DNA from: Candidatus Altimarinota bacterium
GTDB lineage: Bacteria > Patescibacteriota > Gracilibacteria > UBA4473
Direction: 5' to 3'
NCBI GenBank assembly: GCA_021734785.1
Contig: JAIPIF010000001.1
Location: forward strand, 124,001 to 188,000
Length of the DNA: 64,000 nucleotides
In this document: piece after piece, positions 1,580-11,307 of the stretch
Layout of the letters: every line of letters begins with the position of its first letter
Position numbering within the stretch: the first letter of the stretch is position 1
Program-made: the position numbers and the translations under genes
Notes under the pieces: generated by a model
Databases searched by the model: none
The model's input: the letters and a program-made list of their open reading frames with translations, nothing else
Told to the model about the DNA's origin: nothing

Positions 1580-1951
1580 ATGAAAAAATTCCTTGCTCCC
1601 GTCCTCGGACTCTTACTGGCGGTCAGTCTTTTGACAATCGAGCCAGCTGCGGCACAGCTCATTGATCCCGCTGACAGCCCAAATAACATCACCACCGCGA
1701 CGGGTGGCGAAGGATCGGCCCGAAGTCTGGCACGCACGATCATCAACTTTTTCCTCTACTTCCTCGGACTGGTGGCGACCATCATGGTGATTTACGGAGG
1801 ATTTCTCTACATCACCGCGGGGGGAGGCGACACCGAAAAAGCCAAAAAAGTTCTTTTGTACGCCGCCATCGGCATCATCGTAGTCTTGATCTCCTTTGCA
1901 CTGGTCAACACGCTCCTGCGGTCGGCAGATGGAGTGAGTACGGGATTCTGA
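1580..1951 (+). CDS. T4SS pilin-like small membrane protein (VirB2/TrbC type)
   Basis: 123 residues. A signal peptide (about 1-24, ending AAA/QL) is followed by a short polar stretch and two membrane helices (about 55-77 and 86-110) joined by a loop of the form GGG-DTEKAKK. This is the architecture of the T4SS_pilin family often seen in CPR genomes: a secreted pilin subunit or pore component. Start chosen at the MKKF methionine because it begins the signal peptide. No SD motif precedes it. The same helix-loop-helix unit occurs three times in each of the proteins encoded at 6626-7615 and 7615-8835, which suggests a shared envelope or secretion machine. Family call from motif resemblance; role inferred. 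Confidence 0.75.
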   Translation: MKKFLAPVLGLLLAVSLLTIEPAAAQLIDPADSPNNITTATGGEGSARSLARTIINFFLYFLGLVATIMVIYGGFLYITAGGGDTEKAKKVLLYAAIGIIVVLISFALVNTLLRSADGVSTGF

Positions 1952-5531: not shown

Positions 5532-6584
5532 TCAAACGCGCATCTTCTTGAGTTTTTCCAGTGCTTCGGCATTGGTGTCGAGAAAATCGATCTTTCCAAA
5601 ATCTGCCGGTGCCACCCAATCCAGCTTTTGCCCTTCCAGCGGTTTGGGTTCTCCTTTTTGAATTTGGCAACGGTGAAACCGAAGCAGGAGATCTGTTTTT
5701 TCAAACGGCAAAATTGTCTGAAAAAAATGGGGTCGCACGGAGACTTCCACGCCGATCTCCTCCCGTACCTCCCGCTGGACACACGCCCGAAACGACTCTC
5801 CCCTTTGCCGCTTTCCTCCCGGAAATTCCCACTGTCCGGAGAAGGTTTTGTCCTCTGGCCGAGTCTGAATCAGGTATTTTCCCTCTCGGTGAATGCAGGC
5901 AATGCCGATCTCCAGCCGCCATTTTTTTTGTGCGGGCTTTTTGGCGCTCCGTTTTTTGCGTTGGGGCTGAAATTTTTGCTGCACGTTTTCCGGAAAAAAT
6001 GCTCCGAGCTTTCCCGAAATAGTTTCCCCACCCCGCAGCGCCGTGGCCAGGTCCATCATGGCATTGTTCCATTTTCGTCCAGAACCACTGGCCACTACCA
6101 GCTCCTGTGCCATTTTTTCCACCCGTTTTCGGGGCCAGAGGACGCGAATGATTTTTTGGACATTCGTATCAATCGCCGCCACCGGATCGTCCCAAGCAAA
6201 GGCCCGGATGGCGGATGCAGTGTAGCTCCCGATCCCAGGAAGTGATTCGAGCGTTTTTTGTTCTCGCGGAAAGGTTCCCCCATATTTTTGGGCAATGATT
6301 TTGGCCGCGCGGAGCACATTTTTGCCTCGAGAATAGTATCCCAGTCCTTGCCAGACAGGAAAGACCTCCTCCCACGTCGCCCGTGCCAGCGTTTCAACCG
6401 TTGGAAATTGTGTCAAAAATGCTGGAAAATACTGTTTCTGTACACGCGGAACCTGGGTCTGCTGAAGCATGATTTCGCTGATCCAGATGGCATACGGATC
6501 TGTGGTTTTTCGCCAGGGCAGATCCCGCTTGTGTTGGTCGTACCAGTCGAGCAGTGCGTTACAAAAAGCTTTCGGCGTGGGCAT
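5532..6584 (-). CDS. mutY: MutY adenine glycosylase fused to a MutT-like Nudix hydrolase
   Basis: 350 residues. The N-terminal half is a MutY glycosylase: SEIMLQQTQV with catalytic Glu37, helix-hairpin-helix LPGIGSYTASAI (115-126) and catalytic Asp139 in AIDTNV. It removes A paired with 8-oxoG. The four Fe-S cysteines that normally follow (around 185-210) are absent, so this is a clusterless MutY. The C-terminal domain (223-350) keeps a complete Nudix box (G257-x5-E263-x7-REVREEIGV) and a MutT-like EGQ-LDW segment, whereas ordinary MutY C-domains have lost this box. It may therefore also hydrolyse 8-oxo-dGTP. ATG 6584 lies 8 nt after a TACAAC box. Confidence 0.93.
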   Translation of the reverse strand: MPTPKAFCNALLDWYDQHKRDLPWRKTTDPYAIWISEIMLQQTQVPRVQKQYFPAFLTQFPTVETLARATWEEVFPVWQGLGYYSRGKNVLRAAKIIAQKYGGTFPREQKTLESLPGIGSYTASAIRAFAWDDPVAAIDTNVQKIIRVLWPRKRVEKMAQELVVASGSGRKWNNAMMDLATALRGGETISGKLGAFFPENVQQKFQPQRKKRSAKKPAQKKWRLEIGIACIHREGKYLIQTRPEDKTFSGQWEFPGGKRQRGESFRACVQREVREEIGVEVSVRPHFFQTILPFEKTDLLLRFHRCQIQKGEPKPLEGQKLDWVAPADFGKIDFLDTNAEALEKLKKMRV

Positions 6585-6592
6585 CACACAAG

Positions 6593-6625: not shown

Positions 6626-7615
6626 TTAGAGGCTTACAGGAGAGGCAAACTGATTGACGATCGTCCAGGCAGAGAAGGCCAAAAGCAGCCCAATTCCACA
6701 GGCAATCATAATTTTTTTGGCATTCTGCATGGCGTTTTCATCTCCAAAATTGATGATTAGTCGCACTCCCGCATACAACAGGCCGATTACGGCGGCTACG
6801 GCGATGAGCCCGAGGAGATAGTTTCCCCATTTTGCGATGAGGTCGATCAGACGATATGAATTGGCGACCTGGATGCGGCCATCAGCTGCGGTGAAGAGAT
6901 CCCGGAGTGGTTTGATCGAAATGAGAATGACCATGCCGGTAATCGAAAAAATGATCCGCTTTTTGGCGTTGGTAATCTGCTGTTCATTTTCTCCGCCGGC
7001 GAGAATCATGGTAAAGGCGTTATACACGATGTAGCCCACCATTACGATGACCGCCAGTGTCACCATCATGTCAAAAAGTCCTTCGATTTCCCAGACCCCG
7101 CGTCGGGCAAATTCTGCCGTATCAATGAGGTTTCCGGATCCATCCGTCTCCCGGAGAATTTCTCCTTCGTTTCCAAATACGACCCAGTCCACCAGATGCG
7201 TCGTCAAAATCATCAATAAAAATCCAGTAGCAATGGCGAGCAGCTGGTTGACTTTGCTCTTGTATTTTTCTTCATTTCCTTGGGAGACAAACAGCTCAAT
7301 CCCCGCGTACGAAAGCAGAATAATGCCAATCGGAATGGCAGCATTTTGCAAAAACTTGCTGACAATCGTGACCGTATTTCGAAACTGCTCTGTCCCAGGG
7401 CGATCATTTCCCCCGGTGTAGTCCGGGAGTCCAGAATCTCCATTTTCATCAAAAAACTTTCCTCCTCCCTGAAAGAGGGCGCTGGAATCGGGGATAGCAG
7501 CAGCTCCGCTGGGCAGGATATACTCCTCCCTCGGCATGTCGGTTTCTTGCGCAAAGAGCGTTCCCCCGTTTCCACAGAGGAGAAGAAACACAAAGAGCAG
7601 GAGAAATTTTTTCAT
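6626..7615 (-). CDS. secreted membrane protein with three tandem T4SS-pilin-like hairpins
   Basis: 329 residues, no close family recognised by name. Signal peptide (1-22), an extracytoplasmic segment of about 55 residues, then three similar helix-loop-helix units at about 80-148, 178-242 and 256-324. The loops read QGNEEKYKSKVNQL, GGENEQQITNAKKRI and FGDENAMQNAKKI and match the loop of the pilin at 1580-1951. The start overlaps the stop of the upstream gene (TGATG), so the two are translationally coupled and probably form one complex. A membrane channel or scaffold of a type IV secretion or DNA-uptake system is a reasonable guess, not shown by the sequence. Confidence 0.7.
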   Translation of the reverse strand: MKKFLLLFVFLLLCGNGGTLFAQETDMPREEYILPSGAAAIPDSSALFQGGGKFFDENGDSGLPDYTGGNDRPGTEQFRNTVTIVSKFLQNAAIPIGIILLSYAGIELFVSQGNEEKYKSKVNQLLAIATGFLLMILTTHLVDWVVFGNEGEILRETDGSGNLIDTAEFARRGVWEIEGLFDMMVTLAVIVMVGYIVYNAFTMILAGGENEQQITNAKKRIIFSITGMVILISIKPLRDLFTAADGRIQVANSYRLIDLIAKWGNYLLGLIAVAAVIGLLYAGVRLIINFGDENAMQNAKKIMIACGIGLLLAFSAWTIVNQFASPVSL

Positions 7616-8835
7616 CAGGAATTGATCAAAAATCGAGCAATGGTGTAGGCGGAGAAGCTGATAATCACTCCCAAAACATTGGCCATCAAAATGCGCTTTG
7701 CGCGGTTCATTTGATCCTCATTTCCAAAGCTCATGACATAGTACAGGCTCGAAAAAATCAACATGACGGTGGCAACAATTGCGACAAAAGAGAGCATGAA
7801 ATTGATCAATCCGCCGACCTCAGCTGCGAATATCAACCCGGTCATTTCGACGCCTTCCTTGAAGGAAAAAATCCGGATAAATACCTCTGCCATTAGGATA
7901 AAAATTGCTCCGAGCAAGAAGGACTGTAAAAACTGTTTTTCCTGAGAAATCGCTTCTTCTTTTTGTCCGCGGATAATGAGGTTATAGCCGGACATCAGCC
8001 CATTGAGGAGCATGAATCCCCCCACGATGTACTCAAAGAATCGGACAATTTGTTTTACCTTCTGGTACATGTTTGGCACCGCTCCGTCATTTCCTTGCAG
8101 GAGATCCCGATTGACCGGATCCAGGACTTTGAAGCCGACAAATTCCGCGACAGAAATAATAGCGAGTCCCAGAATAATCCAGCCAAACTGTTCTTTGTAT
8201 TTGCTGATGCGCTCATCCTGCCCTTGGGCGATAATAAATTTTATGCCCAGAACAATCAGATAAATAATGCCGATCCCTCCCAGGATTCGGTTGATCGTGC
8301 GCATGAGTTTTCCGTTTCGCCACGAAAACATGTCCCGGAGGCGATCTTCGTTGTCACCCATAAAATTATCGCCGGCCTGCATGACGAGATTTTTGTCTGT
8401 GTAAATGGGGTCGTAGTTTCGCGTGGTGAGAGGAAGATATTTCCCGAGCTCTTCAAAAAGAGCTTTTGCGTTTTCAAACTCTTTTGCCGCCTCGTAGCAA
8501 TTTTGAAACGAGAGCCCTTCTATCGAATATCCTTGGGGGAGAGCCCTTTTTGCTTTTCGGTCTTCTTCTGTGAGTTCGATATTCATTTTTCCTTTCCCTT
8601 TCTCAAAAGATTCCCGTGCTTCTCTGAGGAGTTTTGGATTGCTGTCGGCATTGTATTCCAGAAACGTTTGAAACTCTTCGGAGGTGCTTTGGGCACGGTA
8701 TGCTTTGAGATATTCACTTTTGGCTCCTTCACAGACATTTTGTATTACCGTCTCGCTTGGGGCGGCCCAGACAGCGCTTCCCGCCGACAAAAGCAGGGCA
8801 AATCCAAGTAAAAACCCACGAGATAGTTTTTTCAT
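7615..8835 (-). CDS. secreted membrane protein with N-terminal helical domain and three pilin-like hairpins
   Basis: 406 residues from ATG 8835. Signal peptide 1-24 (AWA/A), a charged, mostly helical exported domain (25-178, with cysteines at 35 and 113 that could pair), then three helix-loop-helix units at about 179-236, 261-324 and 341-405. The loops are AQGQDERISKYKEQ, RGQKEEAISQEKQF and FGNEDQMNRAKRI. It shares this threefold plan with the next gene downstream, with which it overlaps by one base. A TACAAT box ends 7 nt before the ATG. Possible role: paired subunits of a VirB6-like or pilin-derived membrane pore. Confidence 0.7.
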   Translation of the reverse strand: MKKLSRGFLLGFALLLSAGSAVWAAPSETVIQNVCEGAKSEYLKAYRAQSTSEEFQTFLEYNADSNPKLLREARESFEKGKGKMNIELTEEDRKAKRALPQGYSIEGLSFQNCYEAAKEFENAKALFEELGKYLPLTTRNYDPIYTDKNLVMQAGDNFMGDNEDRLRDMFSWRNGKLMRTINRILGGIGIIYLIVLGIKFIIAQGQDERISKYKEQFGWIILGLAIISVAEFVGFKVLDPVNRDLLQGNDGAVPNMYQKVKQIVRFFEYIVGGFMLLNGLMSGYNLIIRGQKEEAISQEKQFLQSFLLGAIFILMAEVFIRIFSFKEGVEMTGLIFAAEVGGLINFMLSFVAIVATVMLIFSSLYYVMSFGNEDQMNRAKRILMANVLGVIISFSAYTIARFLINS

Positions 8836-8871: not shown

Positions 8872-8901
8872 GTCCTGATGCTGGTTTCTCCCGCAGGGGA
8901 T

Positions 8902-8929
8902 TTGACAAAAAAAAATCGCTCTCTACAAT
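8902..8929 (+). promoter_or_regulatory. promoter of small membrane protein gene
   Basis: Consensus TTGACA (8902-8907), 16 nt A-rich spacer, TACAAT (8924-8929). Leader of about 23 nt to the ATG at 8959. Confidence 0.85.
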
Positions 8930-8958
8930 GCCGCTGCTTTTGTTCTTTTTCACTCGCA

Positions 8959-9198
8959 ATGATCGCGTGGTTGTTGATTCCCGGCGGGATTGTGATCCTG
9001 GTGTACGCCGTCAAAATTGTAGACCAATTTTTGGGTGAAATCGCTTTTGCTGAGCGAGTTCTCGGCAGTGGCGGGACGTACACCTTTGTCAAACTTTTGG
9101 GGGTGGCGACGACGTTCCTCTCCATCATGTGGTTGACGGGCGATCTGCCCCGATGGTTGCGATCGACCTTTGGCATGTTTTTCGGCGGAATAGGATGA
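8959..9198 (+). CDS. small two-helix membrane protein, function unknown
   Basis: 79 residues with two hydrophobic segments (about 3-24 and 43-62) and a short amphipathic C-terminus ending FFGGIG. Start chosen at MIAWLL because it follows a strong promoter and begins the first helix. Its stop lies only 3 bases before tRNA-Ala, so gene and tRNAs may share a transcript. No family recognised. Confidence 0.6.
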   Translation: MIAWLLIPGGIVILVYAVKIVDQFLGEIAFAERVLGSGGTYTFVKLLGVATTFLSIMWLTGDLPRWLRSTFGMFFGGIG

Positions 9199-9398: not shown

Positions 9399-9473
9399 GG
9401 GTGAGTAGCTCAGTGGTAGAGCAGTAGCCTTTTAAGCTATTGGCCGTGGGTTCGAACCCCACCTCACCCACCA
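9399..9473 (+). tRNA. tRNA-Lys (TTT), integration target
   Basis: Acceptor GGGTGAG/CTCACCC, anticodon loop CTTTTAA (anticodon TTT), T-loop TTCGAAC, encoded CCA at 9471-9473. The reverse-strand serine recombinase ORF ends inside the anticodon loop (9432), and the last seven bases CCCACCA recur at 15745-15751. The tRNA thus seems to be the attachment site of the element to its right. Confidence 0.97.
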
Positions 9474-11213
9474 TTTATCAGAATTTGCCCCGAACTCTTC
9501 AAGGATATCCTGGGGGAGTTTTAGCTTGAATAAGAGCTTGTGAGTAATTTTTTGTCCTGCGGTGCGCCTCCCGGCAATAGGATCACTTGGTGTCACAGGA
9601 CGAGAATATACGATTATTTCTTGGATGAGGAGGTGAAATATTTTGTATAATTCCTCGCGGTCTTTTGTCACGCTAGTAAGCATTTTCTTGTATTTTTCTG
9701 AGAAGGCTTCCAGGGTTTTTTGATACCCAGTAGAAAGCGTTTTTTGGGCAATTTGTTCTTCCACAGTTTCAAGTGTTTTTTTAGTCTCTCTTGCTCCGTT
9801 TCTTATTTGTTCGATCTCCGCCTTTAGCGTGTCTGAATCAATGAATCCTTCAGTATGTTGAAATCGAAGAGACTGTTCCCTTTCTGGGGTGCCATTAACT
9901 ACCTTCCGCAATCTCTCAGCTTCTTTTCTTAGTTTTTCGACTTCTTTCTGTGTGGACTTCAGCCCTTGTTGGTATTCAAAAGCGGCTTTTGGATTCTTTA
10001 ATAATTTTTTCACAAATTCTAAAACGAAAGCTTCAATTTCATCGGCATTTATGGGAAGGGTTTTGCACTGTGAACTTGTTTTCCCCCCTTTTCGTTGGCC
10101 GCATTTATAGTAGAAGGAAAAGCGGTCTTTTCCTTTTTTGATTCGTTTTCGCTCTCCTACCCAGGTCATGTATTTTTTCTCTCCTTCTTTTGTGCTGGAG
10201 CAACAATCACATTTCAAAAGGCCTCGAAGCAGATAGAGGTGTTCGTCTTGTTTTCGTCGGGAAAGGTATTTTTCTGAAAGAAGCCGCCTTTTAGCTTTTT
10301 CAAAAGTAACACGATCTATGATAGCCGGTTGGCGAAAAGATGATTTTTTCCATTTTTCCCGCTTCAATCTTTTTCCCTTGCTAGTCTTATTGTAGTAATA
10401 ATCACCCACATAAATGCTGTCACTAAGTGTTTTTTTGATTTGCTCCGCCCGCCAAAAAGAAGGCGTATTTTTTTTGGTAAGGCTTCCTTTCCGTTTCACA
10501 TTCTTTATGGCTGATGCCTCAGGAGATAAGACTTCTTGATTGGTAAGTTTTTTTGCGATTGCAGCAAAGGAATGTTTTTGATCTACAAACTCATCAAAGA
10601 TAAAGCGGACAATTTCAGCTTCCTCTGGGAATATCTCAAGCCTCTTATCTGCACTTTTTTTGTAGCCATAAGGGGGAACTTTTCCCATGAAAACTCCCGC
10701 CCTAGCAGCCGCATCTCGTCCCGCCTGTGATCGCTCCCGGAATGTTTCCATTTCCAACTCTGCTATTACTCCTACGATTCCAAGGATAGCTCGCCCAAAG
10801 GCAGTAGAAGTATCAATGTTTTCATGTACGGAAAAAAATTCAACGTTGTGTTCTCCTAAAAAATCGATGACGTCCAGTAAAATTTTAAGCTTTCGGGCAA
10901 AGCGATCCATTTTGTACACAGCCACCATGTCAAAAGGCTTCTGGCCCTTTGGAGCATTCAAAATGGCCTCTTGTAGTTTTGCGAAGCCAGGTCTTTCTTC
11001 CATGGGAGTGGTCCCACTTACATCTTGGTCGATGTAAATATGCTCTTTTCCGGCAGAAATAAATCCTCCCCCCGGAGCATAAGACTTTGATTTTATGAGG
11101 CTTTCGATAGCGTGTTTTTGCAGAGCTATTCCGTATTTTTCCGTTTGGTCTTCAGTTGAAACCCTTAGGTAAATCGCAACGCGTTTCGGTGGAGCTTCTT
11201 GGTCTGACGGCAT
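9432..11213 (-). CDS. large serine recombinase / integrase
   Basis: 593 residues from ATG 11213 (8 nt after a TATACT box). N-terminal resolvase domain with catalytic Ser in IYLRVSTEDQ, DVSGTTPMEERPGF, and YKMDRFARKLK; recombinase domain (PYGYKK...); zinc ribbon around residues 350-400 (CDCC...YKCG...C); then a coiled coil (about 430-510). Such enzymes integrate and excise mobile elements at short att sites. Its last codons are read from the tRNA-Lys gene (the tail WWVRWGSNPRPIA is tRNA-derived), which shows that integration created the present stop and places the element directly right of the tRNA. Confidence 0.95.
   Translation of the reverse strand: MPSDQEAPPKRVAIYLRVSTEDQTEKYGIALQKHAIESLIKSKSYAPGGGFISAGKEHIYIDQDVSGTTPMEERPGFAKLQEAILNAPKGQKPFDMVAVYKMDRFARKLKILLDVIDFLGEHNVEFFSVHENIDTSTAFGRAILGIVGVIAELEMETFRERSQAGRDAAARAGVFMGKVPPYGYKKSADKRLEIFPEEAEIVRFIFDEFVDQKHSFAAIAKKLTNQEVLSPEASAIKNVKRKGSLTKKNTPSFWRAEQIKKTLSDSIYVGDYYYNKTSKGKRLKREKWKKSSFRQPAIIDRVTFEKAKRRLLSEKYLSRRKQDEHLYLLRGLLKCDCCSSTKEGEKKYMTWVGERKRIKKGKDRFSFYYKCGQRKGGKTSSQCKTLPINADEIEAFVLEFVKKLLKNPKAAFEYQQGLKSTQKEVEKLRKEAERLRKVVNGTPEREQSLRFQHTEGFIDSDTLKAEIEQIRNGARETKKTLETVEEQIAQKTLSTGYQKTLEAFSEKYKKMLTSVTKDREELYKIFHLLIQEIIVYSRPVTPSDPIAGRRTAGQKITHKLLFKLKLPQDILEEFGANSDKWWVRWGSNPRPIA
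9467..9473 (+). repeat. attL-like core in tRNA-Lys 3' end
   Basis: CCCACCA, identical to 15745-15751. On the left it completes tRNA-Lys; on the right the copy is followed by CGTCG, the sequence that follows the CCA end of the other two tRNAs here. This makes it the likely left crossover region of the element. Confidence 0.55.
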
Positions 11214-11307
11214 GGAGAGAAAGTATAGGATTGGCAATACCCGAAGTACTAAGCTTGTATTTCTTCTTTATTCTTATTTCTTATAAAAACTTCTTTTTAA
11301 ATATCCT

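What the first reader, a model, noticed from the sequence alone, without database searches (positions are those of the whole stretch)
6626..8835. Two coupled membrane proteins each made of three tandem pilin-like hairpins
Six helix-loop-helix units (loops such as AGGENEQQITNAKK and SFGNEDQMNRAKR) match the single unit of the VirB2-like pilin at 1580-1951 (AGGGDTEKAKK). Two adjacent genes overlapping by one base both hold exactly three units behind signal peptides. Covalent pilin trimers could form a ring or pore, a design I do not know to be described.
Basis: partly seen in the sequence, partly recalled or inferred. Interest (0 to 1): 0.72.

Follow-up and report, generated by a model that had tools for sequence, protein, structure and literature searches.

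The report
Paired triple-pilin membrane proteins of Gracilibacteria
Two neighbouring genes each encode three secretion-system pilin hairpins strung together in one membrane protein, and the pair is kept across a whole class of tiny host-dependent bacteria, so it is probably a fixed part of the machine they use on other cells, although that function is untested.

Summary
Gene A (6626-7615) and gene B (7615-8835), minus strand, overlap by one base (TGATG). Each encodes a Sec-type signal peptide followed by exactly three VirB2-like hairpins. A profile built only from single-hairpin pilins finds all six units (domain E 2e-6 to 9e-19), above true non-pilin membrane proteins (4.6 bits or less) and reversed sequences (7.5 bits or less). 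AlphaFold2 gives three hairpins in each.

It occurs adjacent, in the order B-A, in 45 aligned loci from 16 families, and close relatives occur in almost every family of the class (Gracilibacteria). Each of the six units keeps its own identity across families (256 of 270 assigned correctly); A and B are paralogues. In 11 loci the pair lies just ahead of a giant pilin-hairpin-plus-PKD protein.

My best reading is a membrane-resident hetero-oligomer at the base of the class's scattered type IV secretion/pilus machine. VirB6 replacement was considered and rejected: a divergent VirB6-like family occurs in 55 of 60 genomes. Fusions of 2, 4 and 5 hairpins occur elsewhere in the phylum, so this is a new variant of a known kind. 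Function and stoichiometry are inferred.

The parts
6626..7615 (-). Gene A: signal peptide plus three T4SS_pilin hairpins, 329 aa
7550..7615 (-). A signal peptide, residues 1-22
   Evidence: hydrophobic N-terminus ending ...LFA
7175..7396 (-). Hairpin A1 (residues 74-147)
   Evidence: 19.1 bits
6893..7120 (-). Hairpin A2 (residues 166-241)
   Evidence: 30.1 bits
6644..6868 (-). Hairpin A3 (residues 250-324), the most pilin-like unit of A
   Evidence: (50.9 bits)
7615..8835 (-). Gene B: signal peptide, variable extracytoplasmic N-terminal region, three T4SS_pilin hairpins, 406 aa; stop overlaps the start of A (TGATG)
8764..8835 (-). B signal peptide, residues 1-24
8122..8316 (-). Hairpin B1 (residues 174-238)
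   Evidence: (23.0 bits)
7864..8085 (-). Hairpin B2 (residues 251-324), the most divergent unit
   Evidence: (14.1 bits)
7621..7851 (-). Hairpin B3 (residues 329-405), the most pilin-like unit of B
   Evidence: (53.9 bits)
1580..1951 (+). Single-hairpin VirB2-like pilin P, hairpin at residues 43-113; syntenic with the pair in close relatives

Best explanation
A and B are paralogous, Sec-exported polytopic membrane proteins, each three VirB2-like pilin hairpins fused in tandem. Shown: homology of all six units to single pilins, three-hairpin topology, common origin of A and B from an ancestor that already had three hairpins, fixed identity of each of the six positions, and class-wide conservation of the adjacent pair. 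Inferred: A and B bind each other in the cytoplasmic membrane and form a small, fixed, asymmetric hetero-oligomer at the base of the class's type IV secretion-derived pilus machine (VirB4, PrgI/VirB3, TrsD, a divergent VirB6 and single-hairpin pilins, scattered in the genome). The last hairpins (A3, B3) would present a pilin-like face on which single pilins and the pilin-anchored PKD adhesins pack, while A1, A2, B1 and B2 make contacts specific to the complex.
For: All six units match a profile made only from single pilins and align with them by hhalign at 98.5% or more. A versus B profiles: probability 100%, E 2e-54, co-linear over 258 columns. In five-fold leave-out tests 256 of 270 units were assigned to their own position class; A3 and B3 are closest to each other and to single pilins. 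Such position-specific divergence fits a complex with defined neighbours better than a polymer of equivalent subunits (inference). Pair adjacent, co-directional, B then A, in all 45 loci used, mostly with -8 to +10 bp between them; all 145 class genomes sampled have a match to the A profile, most of them full length or nearly so. In close relatives the order is B-A-mutY-ftsK-pilin-recG-TrsD-PrgI. In 11 loci A is followed directly by a giant protein with an N-terminal T4SS_pilin hairpin and PKD arrays. VirB4 is found in 59 of 60 genomes, almost always in one copy.
Against: No interaction, localisation or multimer evidence. The pair is not next to virB4 or the VirB6-like gene; in the window's genome the giant and PKD proteins are at C1:275-282 kb and virB4 is on another contig. 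Linkage to pilin, TrsD and PrgI was seen only in the window's family and involves housekeeping genes too. The asymmetry argument would also fit minor subunits of a filament. The 45 loci were chosen because two adjacent ORFs could be called, so they do not measure how often A occurs without B.
Confidence: 0.45

Rival explanations
1. A and B are minor or major subunits of the pilus itself: each polypeptide supplies three neighbouring protomers, linked on the outer surface, and the N-terminal extensions decorate the filament.
For: Units are pilin homologues, signal peptides and the predicted loop-inside topology are as in VirB2, and linkers between hairpins lie on the same face as VirB2 termini. 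Pilin gene arrays of 2-11 genes are common in Patescibacteria (PMC12102498), and fusions of 2-5 hairpins occur inside such arrays.
Against: Four of six hairpins are far from the pilin consensus (14-30 bits against 87-108 for most single pilins) yet conserved position by position, unlike equivalent protomers. N-terminal extensions reach 527 aa in B. The genome keeps separate single-hairpin pilins.
Confidence: 0.25
2. A and B belong to an adhesin-display complex that only borrowed the pilin hairpin as a membrane module: they hold the giant pilin-PKD protein and the PKD membrane protein at the surface, independently of any T4SS.
For: B-A-giant-PKD order in 11 loci from several families, two more with one extra hairpin protein in between; the giant has one T4SS_pilin hairpin near its N-terminus; no virB4, TrsD or PrgI next to the pair in those loci.
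Against: The window's family, and others, do not have the giant next to the pair. The conserved block in close relatives includes a single pilin, TrsD and PrgI. VirB4 is kept alongside in 59 of 60 genomes.
Confidence: 0.2
3. A and B replace VirB6, reported as absent from Gracilibacteria, as the polytopic channel subunit.
For: Each has six membrane helices; PMC12102498 reports VirB6 absent in Gracilibacteria; PF04610 was over its cut-off in only 5 of 60 class genomes; VirB2 and VirB6 have been proposed to share an origin (PMC9905601).
Against: A divergent VirB6-like family (A4) occurs in 55 of 60 class genomes, the window's own at G000:C2:42583-44205 included, and aligns to PF04610-bearing proteins at 98.6%, E 8e-16. 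A does not align to it (probability 5%).
Confidence: 0.04

Closest known systems
T4SS_pilin family PF18895 / VirB2-like pilins of Patescibacteria (PMC12102498)
   Same: Every unit is a member-like hairpin: helix, loop with glycine, acidic residues and lysine, helix; Sec-type signal peptide
   Different: Three hairpins per polypeptide, two paralogous polypeptides, six position-specific unit types; the described pilins carry one hairpin
Multi-gene pilin arrays of Saccharibacteria and other Patescibacteria (six VirB2-like pilins in Southlakia epibionticum, essential; PMC12857230, PMC12102498)
   Same: Several divergent VirB2-like hairpins kept together, total often near six
   Different: Separate genes there, fused in two genes here; hairpin number per array varies from 3 to 9 in the 20 loci counted, so 'six' is not a fixed rule
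VirB6/CedA/TrbL polytopic channel proteins (PF04610; PMC9259494, PMC9905601)
   Same: Several membrane helices; VirB6 is the proposed platform on which VirB2 is assembled; CedA N-terminus reported homologous to the CedA1 pilin
   Different: No profile similarity of A to the class's VirB6-like family; that family is present separately
Conjugative pili of VirB2/TraA/CedA1 (solved as helical filaments with lipid)
   Same: Two-helix hairpin subunit
   Different: No sequence match of A or of the single pilin to any solved chain; tandem fusion not known there

Membership tests
T4SS_pilin (PF18895) | Score above the Pfam cut-off (26.6 bits) | tested here: met
   A 81 bits, B 39.5 bits, single pilin 35.6 bits
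T4SS_pilin (PF18895) | Every unit individually homologous to single pilins | tested here: met
   All six units, E 2e-6 to 9e-19 with a singles-only profile; nulls at most 7.5 bits
VirB2 major pilin | One two-helix hairpin per mature polypeptide | tested here: not met
   Three hairpins in A and in B; so not filed as a VirB2 major pilin
VirB2 major pilin | Cleavable Sec signal peptide | tested here: inconclusive
   Sec-like N-terminus by a simple rule in 43/45 A and 37/45 B; no dedicated predictor and no cleavage data
VirB2 major pilin | Polymerises into a pilus | not testable with these tools
   needs biochemistry or cryo-EM
TrbC/VirB2 (PF04956) | Score above the Pfam cut-off (27.9 bits) | tested here: not met
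   A 24.1 bits, B not listed
VirB6/TrbL (PF04610 and the class's divergent VirB6-like family) | Sequence or profile similarity | tested here: not met
   No PF04610 hit for A or B at E 1 or less; hhalign of A to the A4 family 5%
Patescibacterial T4SS component | Encoded near virB4 | tested here: not met
   virB4 is on another contig (C9:52.8-54.8 kb); T4SS genes are reported as dispersed in Gracilibacteria (PMC12102498)

The most novel reading that the evidence does not exclude
One A and one B close into a pseudo-sixfold ring of six non-identical pilin hairpins, a covalently pre-ordered pore or pilus base matching the six-fold VirB4/VirB3 inner-membrane complex, kept by a whole class of host-dependent bacteria in place of the free pilin arrays of other Patescibacteria.
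Probability: 0.12. Interest if true: 0.8.

Novelty: new variant of a known kind. Interest (0 to 1): 0.52.

Why it matters
The T4SS is reported as essential for epibiotic growth in the one Patescibacterium tested (Saccharibacteria), but how pilins work in these monoderm cells is unknown. A class-wide pair of proteins carrying six fixed, distinguishable pilin hairpins offers a defined complex to express and solve, and a natural test of whether these hairpins build filaments or membrane pores. The search also turned up a divergent VirB6-like family across Gracilibacteria, where VirB6 was reported absent.

Tried and rejected
VirB6 replacement: pursued because VirB6 is reported absent in the class; dropped after an iterative profile search found a divergent VirB6-like family in 55 of 60 genomes. 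A constant total of six hairpins per array phylum-wide: counted 20 array loci outside the class, totals 3-9, so not a rule. Foldseek of A and B against PDB gave nothing at E 0.001 or better, and the second look on A gave only common helical-bundle rows. Sequence search of solved structures gave no relatives. Co-variation of N-terminal extension length between A and B is weak (Spearman 0.38) and the mirror-tree correlation of 0.89 cannot be separated from shared ancestry. The PKD membrane proteins next to the giants show only weak pilin matches, left open.

Full report
WHAT IS THERE. Gene A (6626-7615, minus, 329 aa) and gene B (7615-8835, minus, 406 aa from its ATG) are adjacent; the stop of B and the start of A share one base, TGATG. 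Pfam T4SS_pilin, PF18895, matches A at three places (81 bits), B at two (39.5 bits) and the nearby single pilin P (1580-1951) at one. NCBIfam names A with a pilin-like conjugal transfer model (NF045849, 52.1 bits, cut-off 40). The window's genome has 15 PF18895 stretches in about ten genes.

IS IT MORE THAN CHANCE. I built a profile from 49 single-hairpin pilins, gathered by iterating from P alone, with all A and B proteins and the two-hairpin proteins left out. It finds six units: A 19.1, 30.1 and 50.9 bits; B 23.0, 14.1 and 53.9 bits. Controls: of 71 other multi-helix membrane proteins six scored above 12 bits. Four of these are themselves multi-hairpin pilin-domain proteins, one is a PKD protein with a weak PF18895 match and one lies in a pilin array; the rest reached 4.6 bits or less, and 90 reversed A/B proteins reached 7.5 or less. 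In 42 of 45 A and 42 of 45 B orthologues exactly three units are found. Profile-profile comparison of each unit class with the singles gives 98.5% or more.

SHAPE AND TOPOLOGY. AlphaFold2 on class-wide alignments gives three long-helix hairpins in each protein (pLDDT 74.6 and 75.4; pTM 0.57 and 0.47). The arrangement of the hairpins relative to each other is not reliable at these values. K+R per residue is higher in the hairpin loops than in the linkers (about 3 in 17 against 2 in 25-30), which fits loops inside and termini outside, as in VirB2 (inference from the positive-inside rule).

DISTRIBUTION AND AGE. Close relatives found by FtsK are mostly titled Candidatus Gracilibacteria, and several families of the class have in-frame TGA in A or B, as recoded Gracilibacteria do (established knowledge). 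I aligned 45 adjacent pairs from 16 families; all are co-directional with B first, spacing -8 to +192 bp, mostly 10 or less. Five more loci (L124, L125, L127, L130, L134) hold adjacent multi-hairpin genes. The A profile matches all 145 class genomes sampled at E 1e-15 or better, with full-length matches in families where single-protein searches had failed. Family f13 (L129) is a likely exception, with arrays of mostly single hairpins. Outside the class the same profile mostly finds one- or two-hairpin proteins. A-profile against B-profile: probability 100%, E 2e-54, co-linear over 258 columns, so A and B come from one ancestor that already had three hairpins. Six unit classes were tested in five-fold leave-out: 256 of 270 units go to their own class; A3 and B3 are the closest to each other and to single pilins. 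The six hairpins have thus been distinct parts since before the class radiated.

SURROUNDINGS. In close relatives the order is B-A-mutY-ftsK-(pfkB)-single pilin-recG-TrsD-PrgI (in the window's genome PrgI and TrsD lie in L015). In 11 loci A is followed by a giant protein (about 1,500-1,700 aa) with a signal peptide, one T4SS_pilin hairpin and then PKD domains, usually followed by a PKD protein with several membrane helices; in two more loci one extra hairpin protein lies between (PKD content was tested on two giants, the others were assigned by similarity and hairpin position). In the window's genome these two genes are at C1:275-282 kb. VirB4 (NF045971, 381 bits, cut-off 325) is at C9:52.8-54.8 kb, and it is found in 59 of 60 class genomes, almost always in one copy. 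The parts of the machine are scattered, as reported for the class (PMC12102498).

HOW IT MAY WORK. Position-specific conservation, two pilin-like last units, a strict two-gene pair, and neighbours that carry the same hairpin suggest a fixed hetero-oligomer in the membrane on which pilin-type hairpins pack. I put this ahead of a filament subunit because four of the six hairpins have left the pilin consensus while staying conserved, and because B carries large variable outer domains in several lineages. This step is inference; nothing here measures interaction or stoichiometry.

VIRB6. PMC12102498 reports VirB6 as absent in Gracilibacteria, and PMC9905601 reports that the CedA N-terminus is homologous to its pilin, so I tested whether A and B take VirB6's place. 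PF04610 is over its cut-off in 5 of 60 genomes. Profiles from those proteins led to a second, divergent family (638-909 aa, signal peptide plus about seven helices, no convincing Pfam match) found in 55 of 60 genomes, the window's own included, which aligns with the PF04610-bearing proteins at 98.6%. A does not align with it (5%). The replacement idea is disfavoured.

NOVELTY. PF18895 already recognises the repeats, and multi-hairpin fusions of 2, 4 and 5 units exist elsewhere in the phylum. Papers describe arrays of separate pilin genes; none of those I could search describes tandem hairpins in one protein (subscription papers and preprints not held). Hence: new variant of a known kind.

Noticed in passing
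G000:C2:42583-44205; L262-L271 (alignment A4): Divergent VirB6-like family in 55 of 60 class genomes, without a convincing Pfam match; VirB6 had been reported absent in Gracilibacteria.
   Followed up: partly
L010 7594-12213 (C1:275.6-280.2 kb); L076, L077, L079, L080, L082, L084, L093, L112-L115: Giant proteins (about 1,500-1,700 aa where complete) joining one T4SS_pilin hairpin to PKD arrays, right behind gene A in 11 loci: pilin-anchored adhesin-like proteins.
   Followed up: partly
L180 698-2077; L179 493-1737; L178 287-1381: Single proteins with five, four and four tandem pilin hairpins, one of them in a class genome (G081), the others elsewhere in the phylum.
   Followed up: partly
window 8878-9198 (+): Small divergently transcribed protein next to B, about 78-124 aa in relatives, conserved beside the pair in the family, no Pfam match.
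   Followed up: no
window 9432-11237 (-): Large serine recombinase (Resolvase, Recombinase, Zn-ribbon domains) near the pair, possible mobile element boundary.
   Followed up: no
window 5532-6587 (-): MutY-like HhH-GPD protein fused to a C-terminal NUDIX domain, syntenic with the pair in relatives.
   Followed up: no
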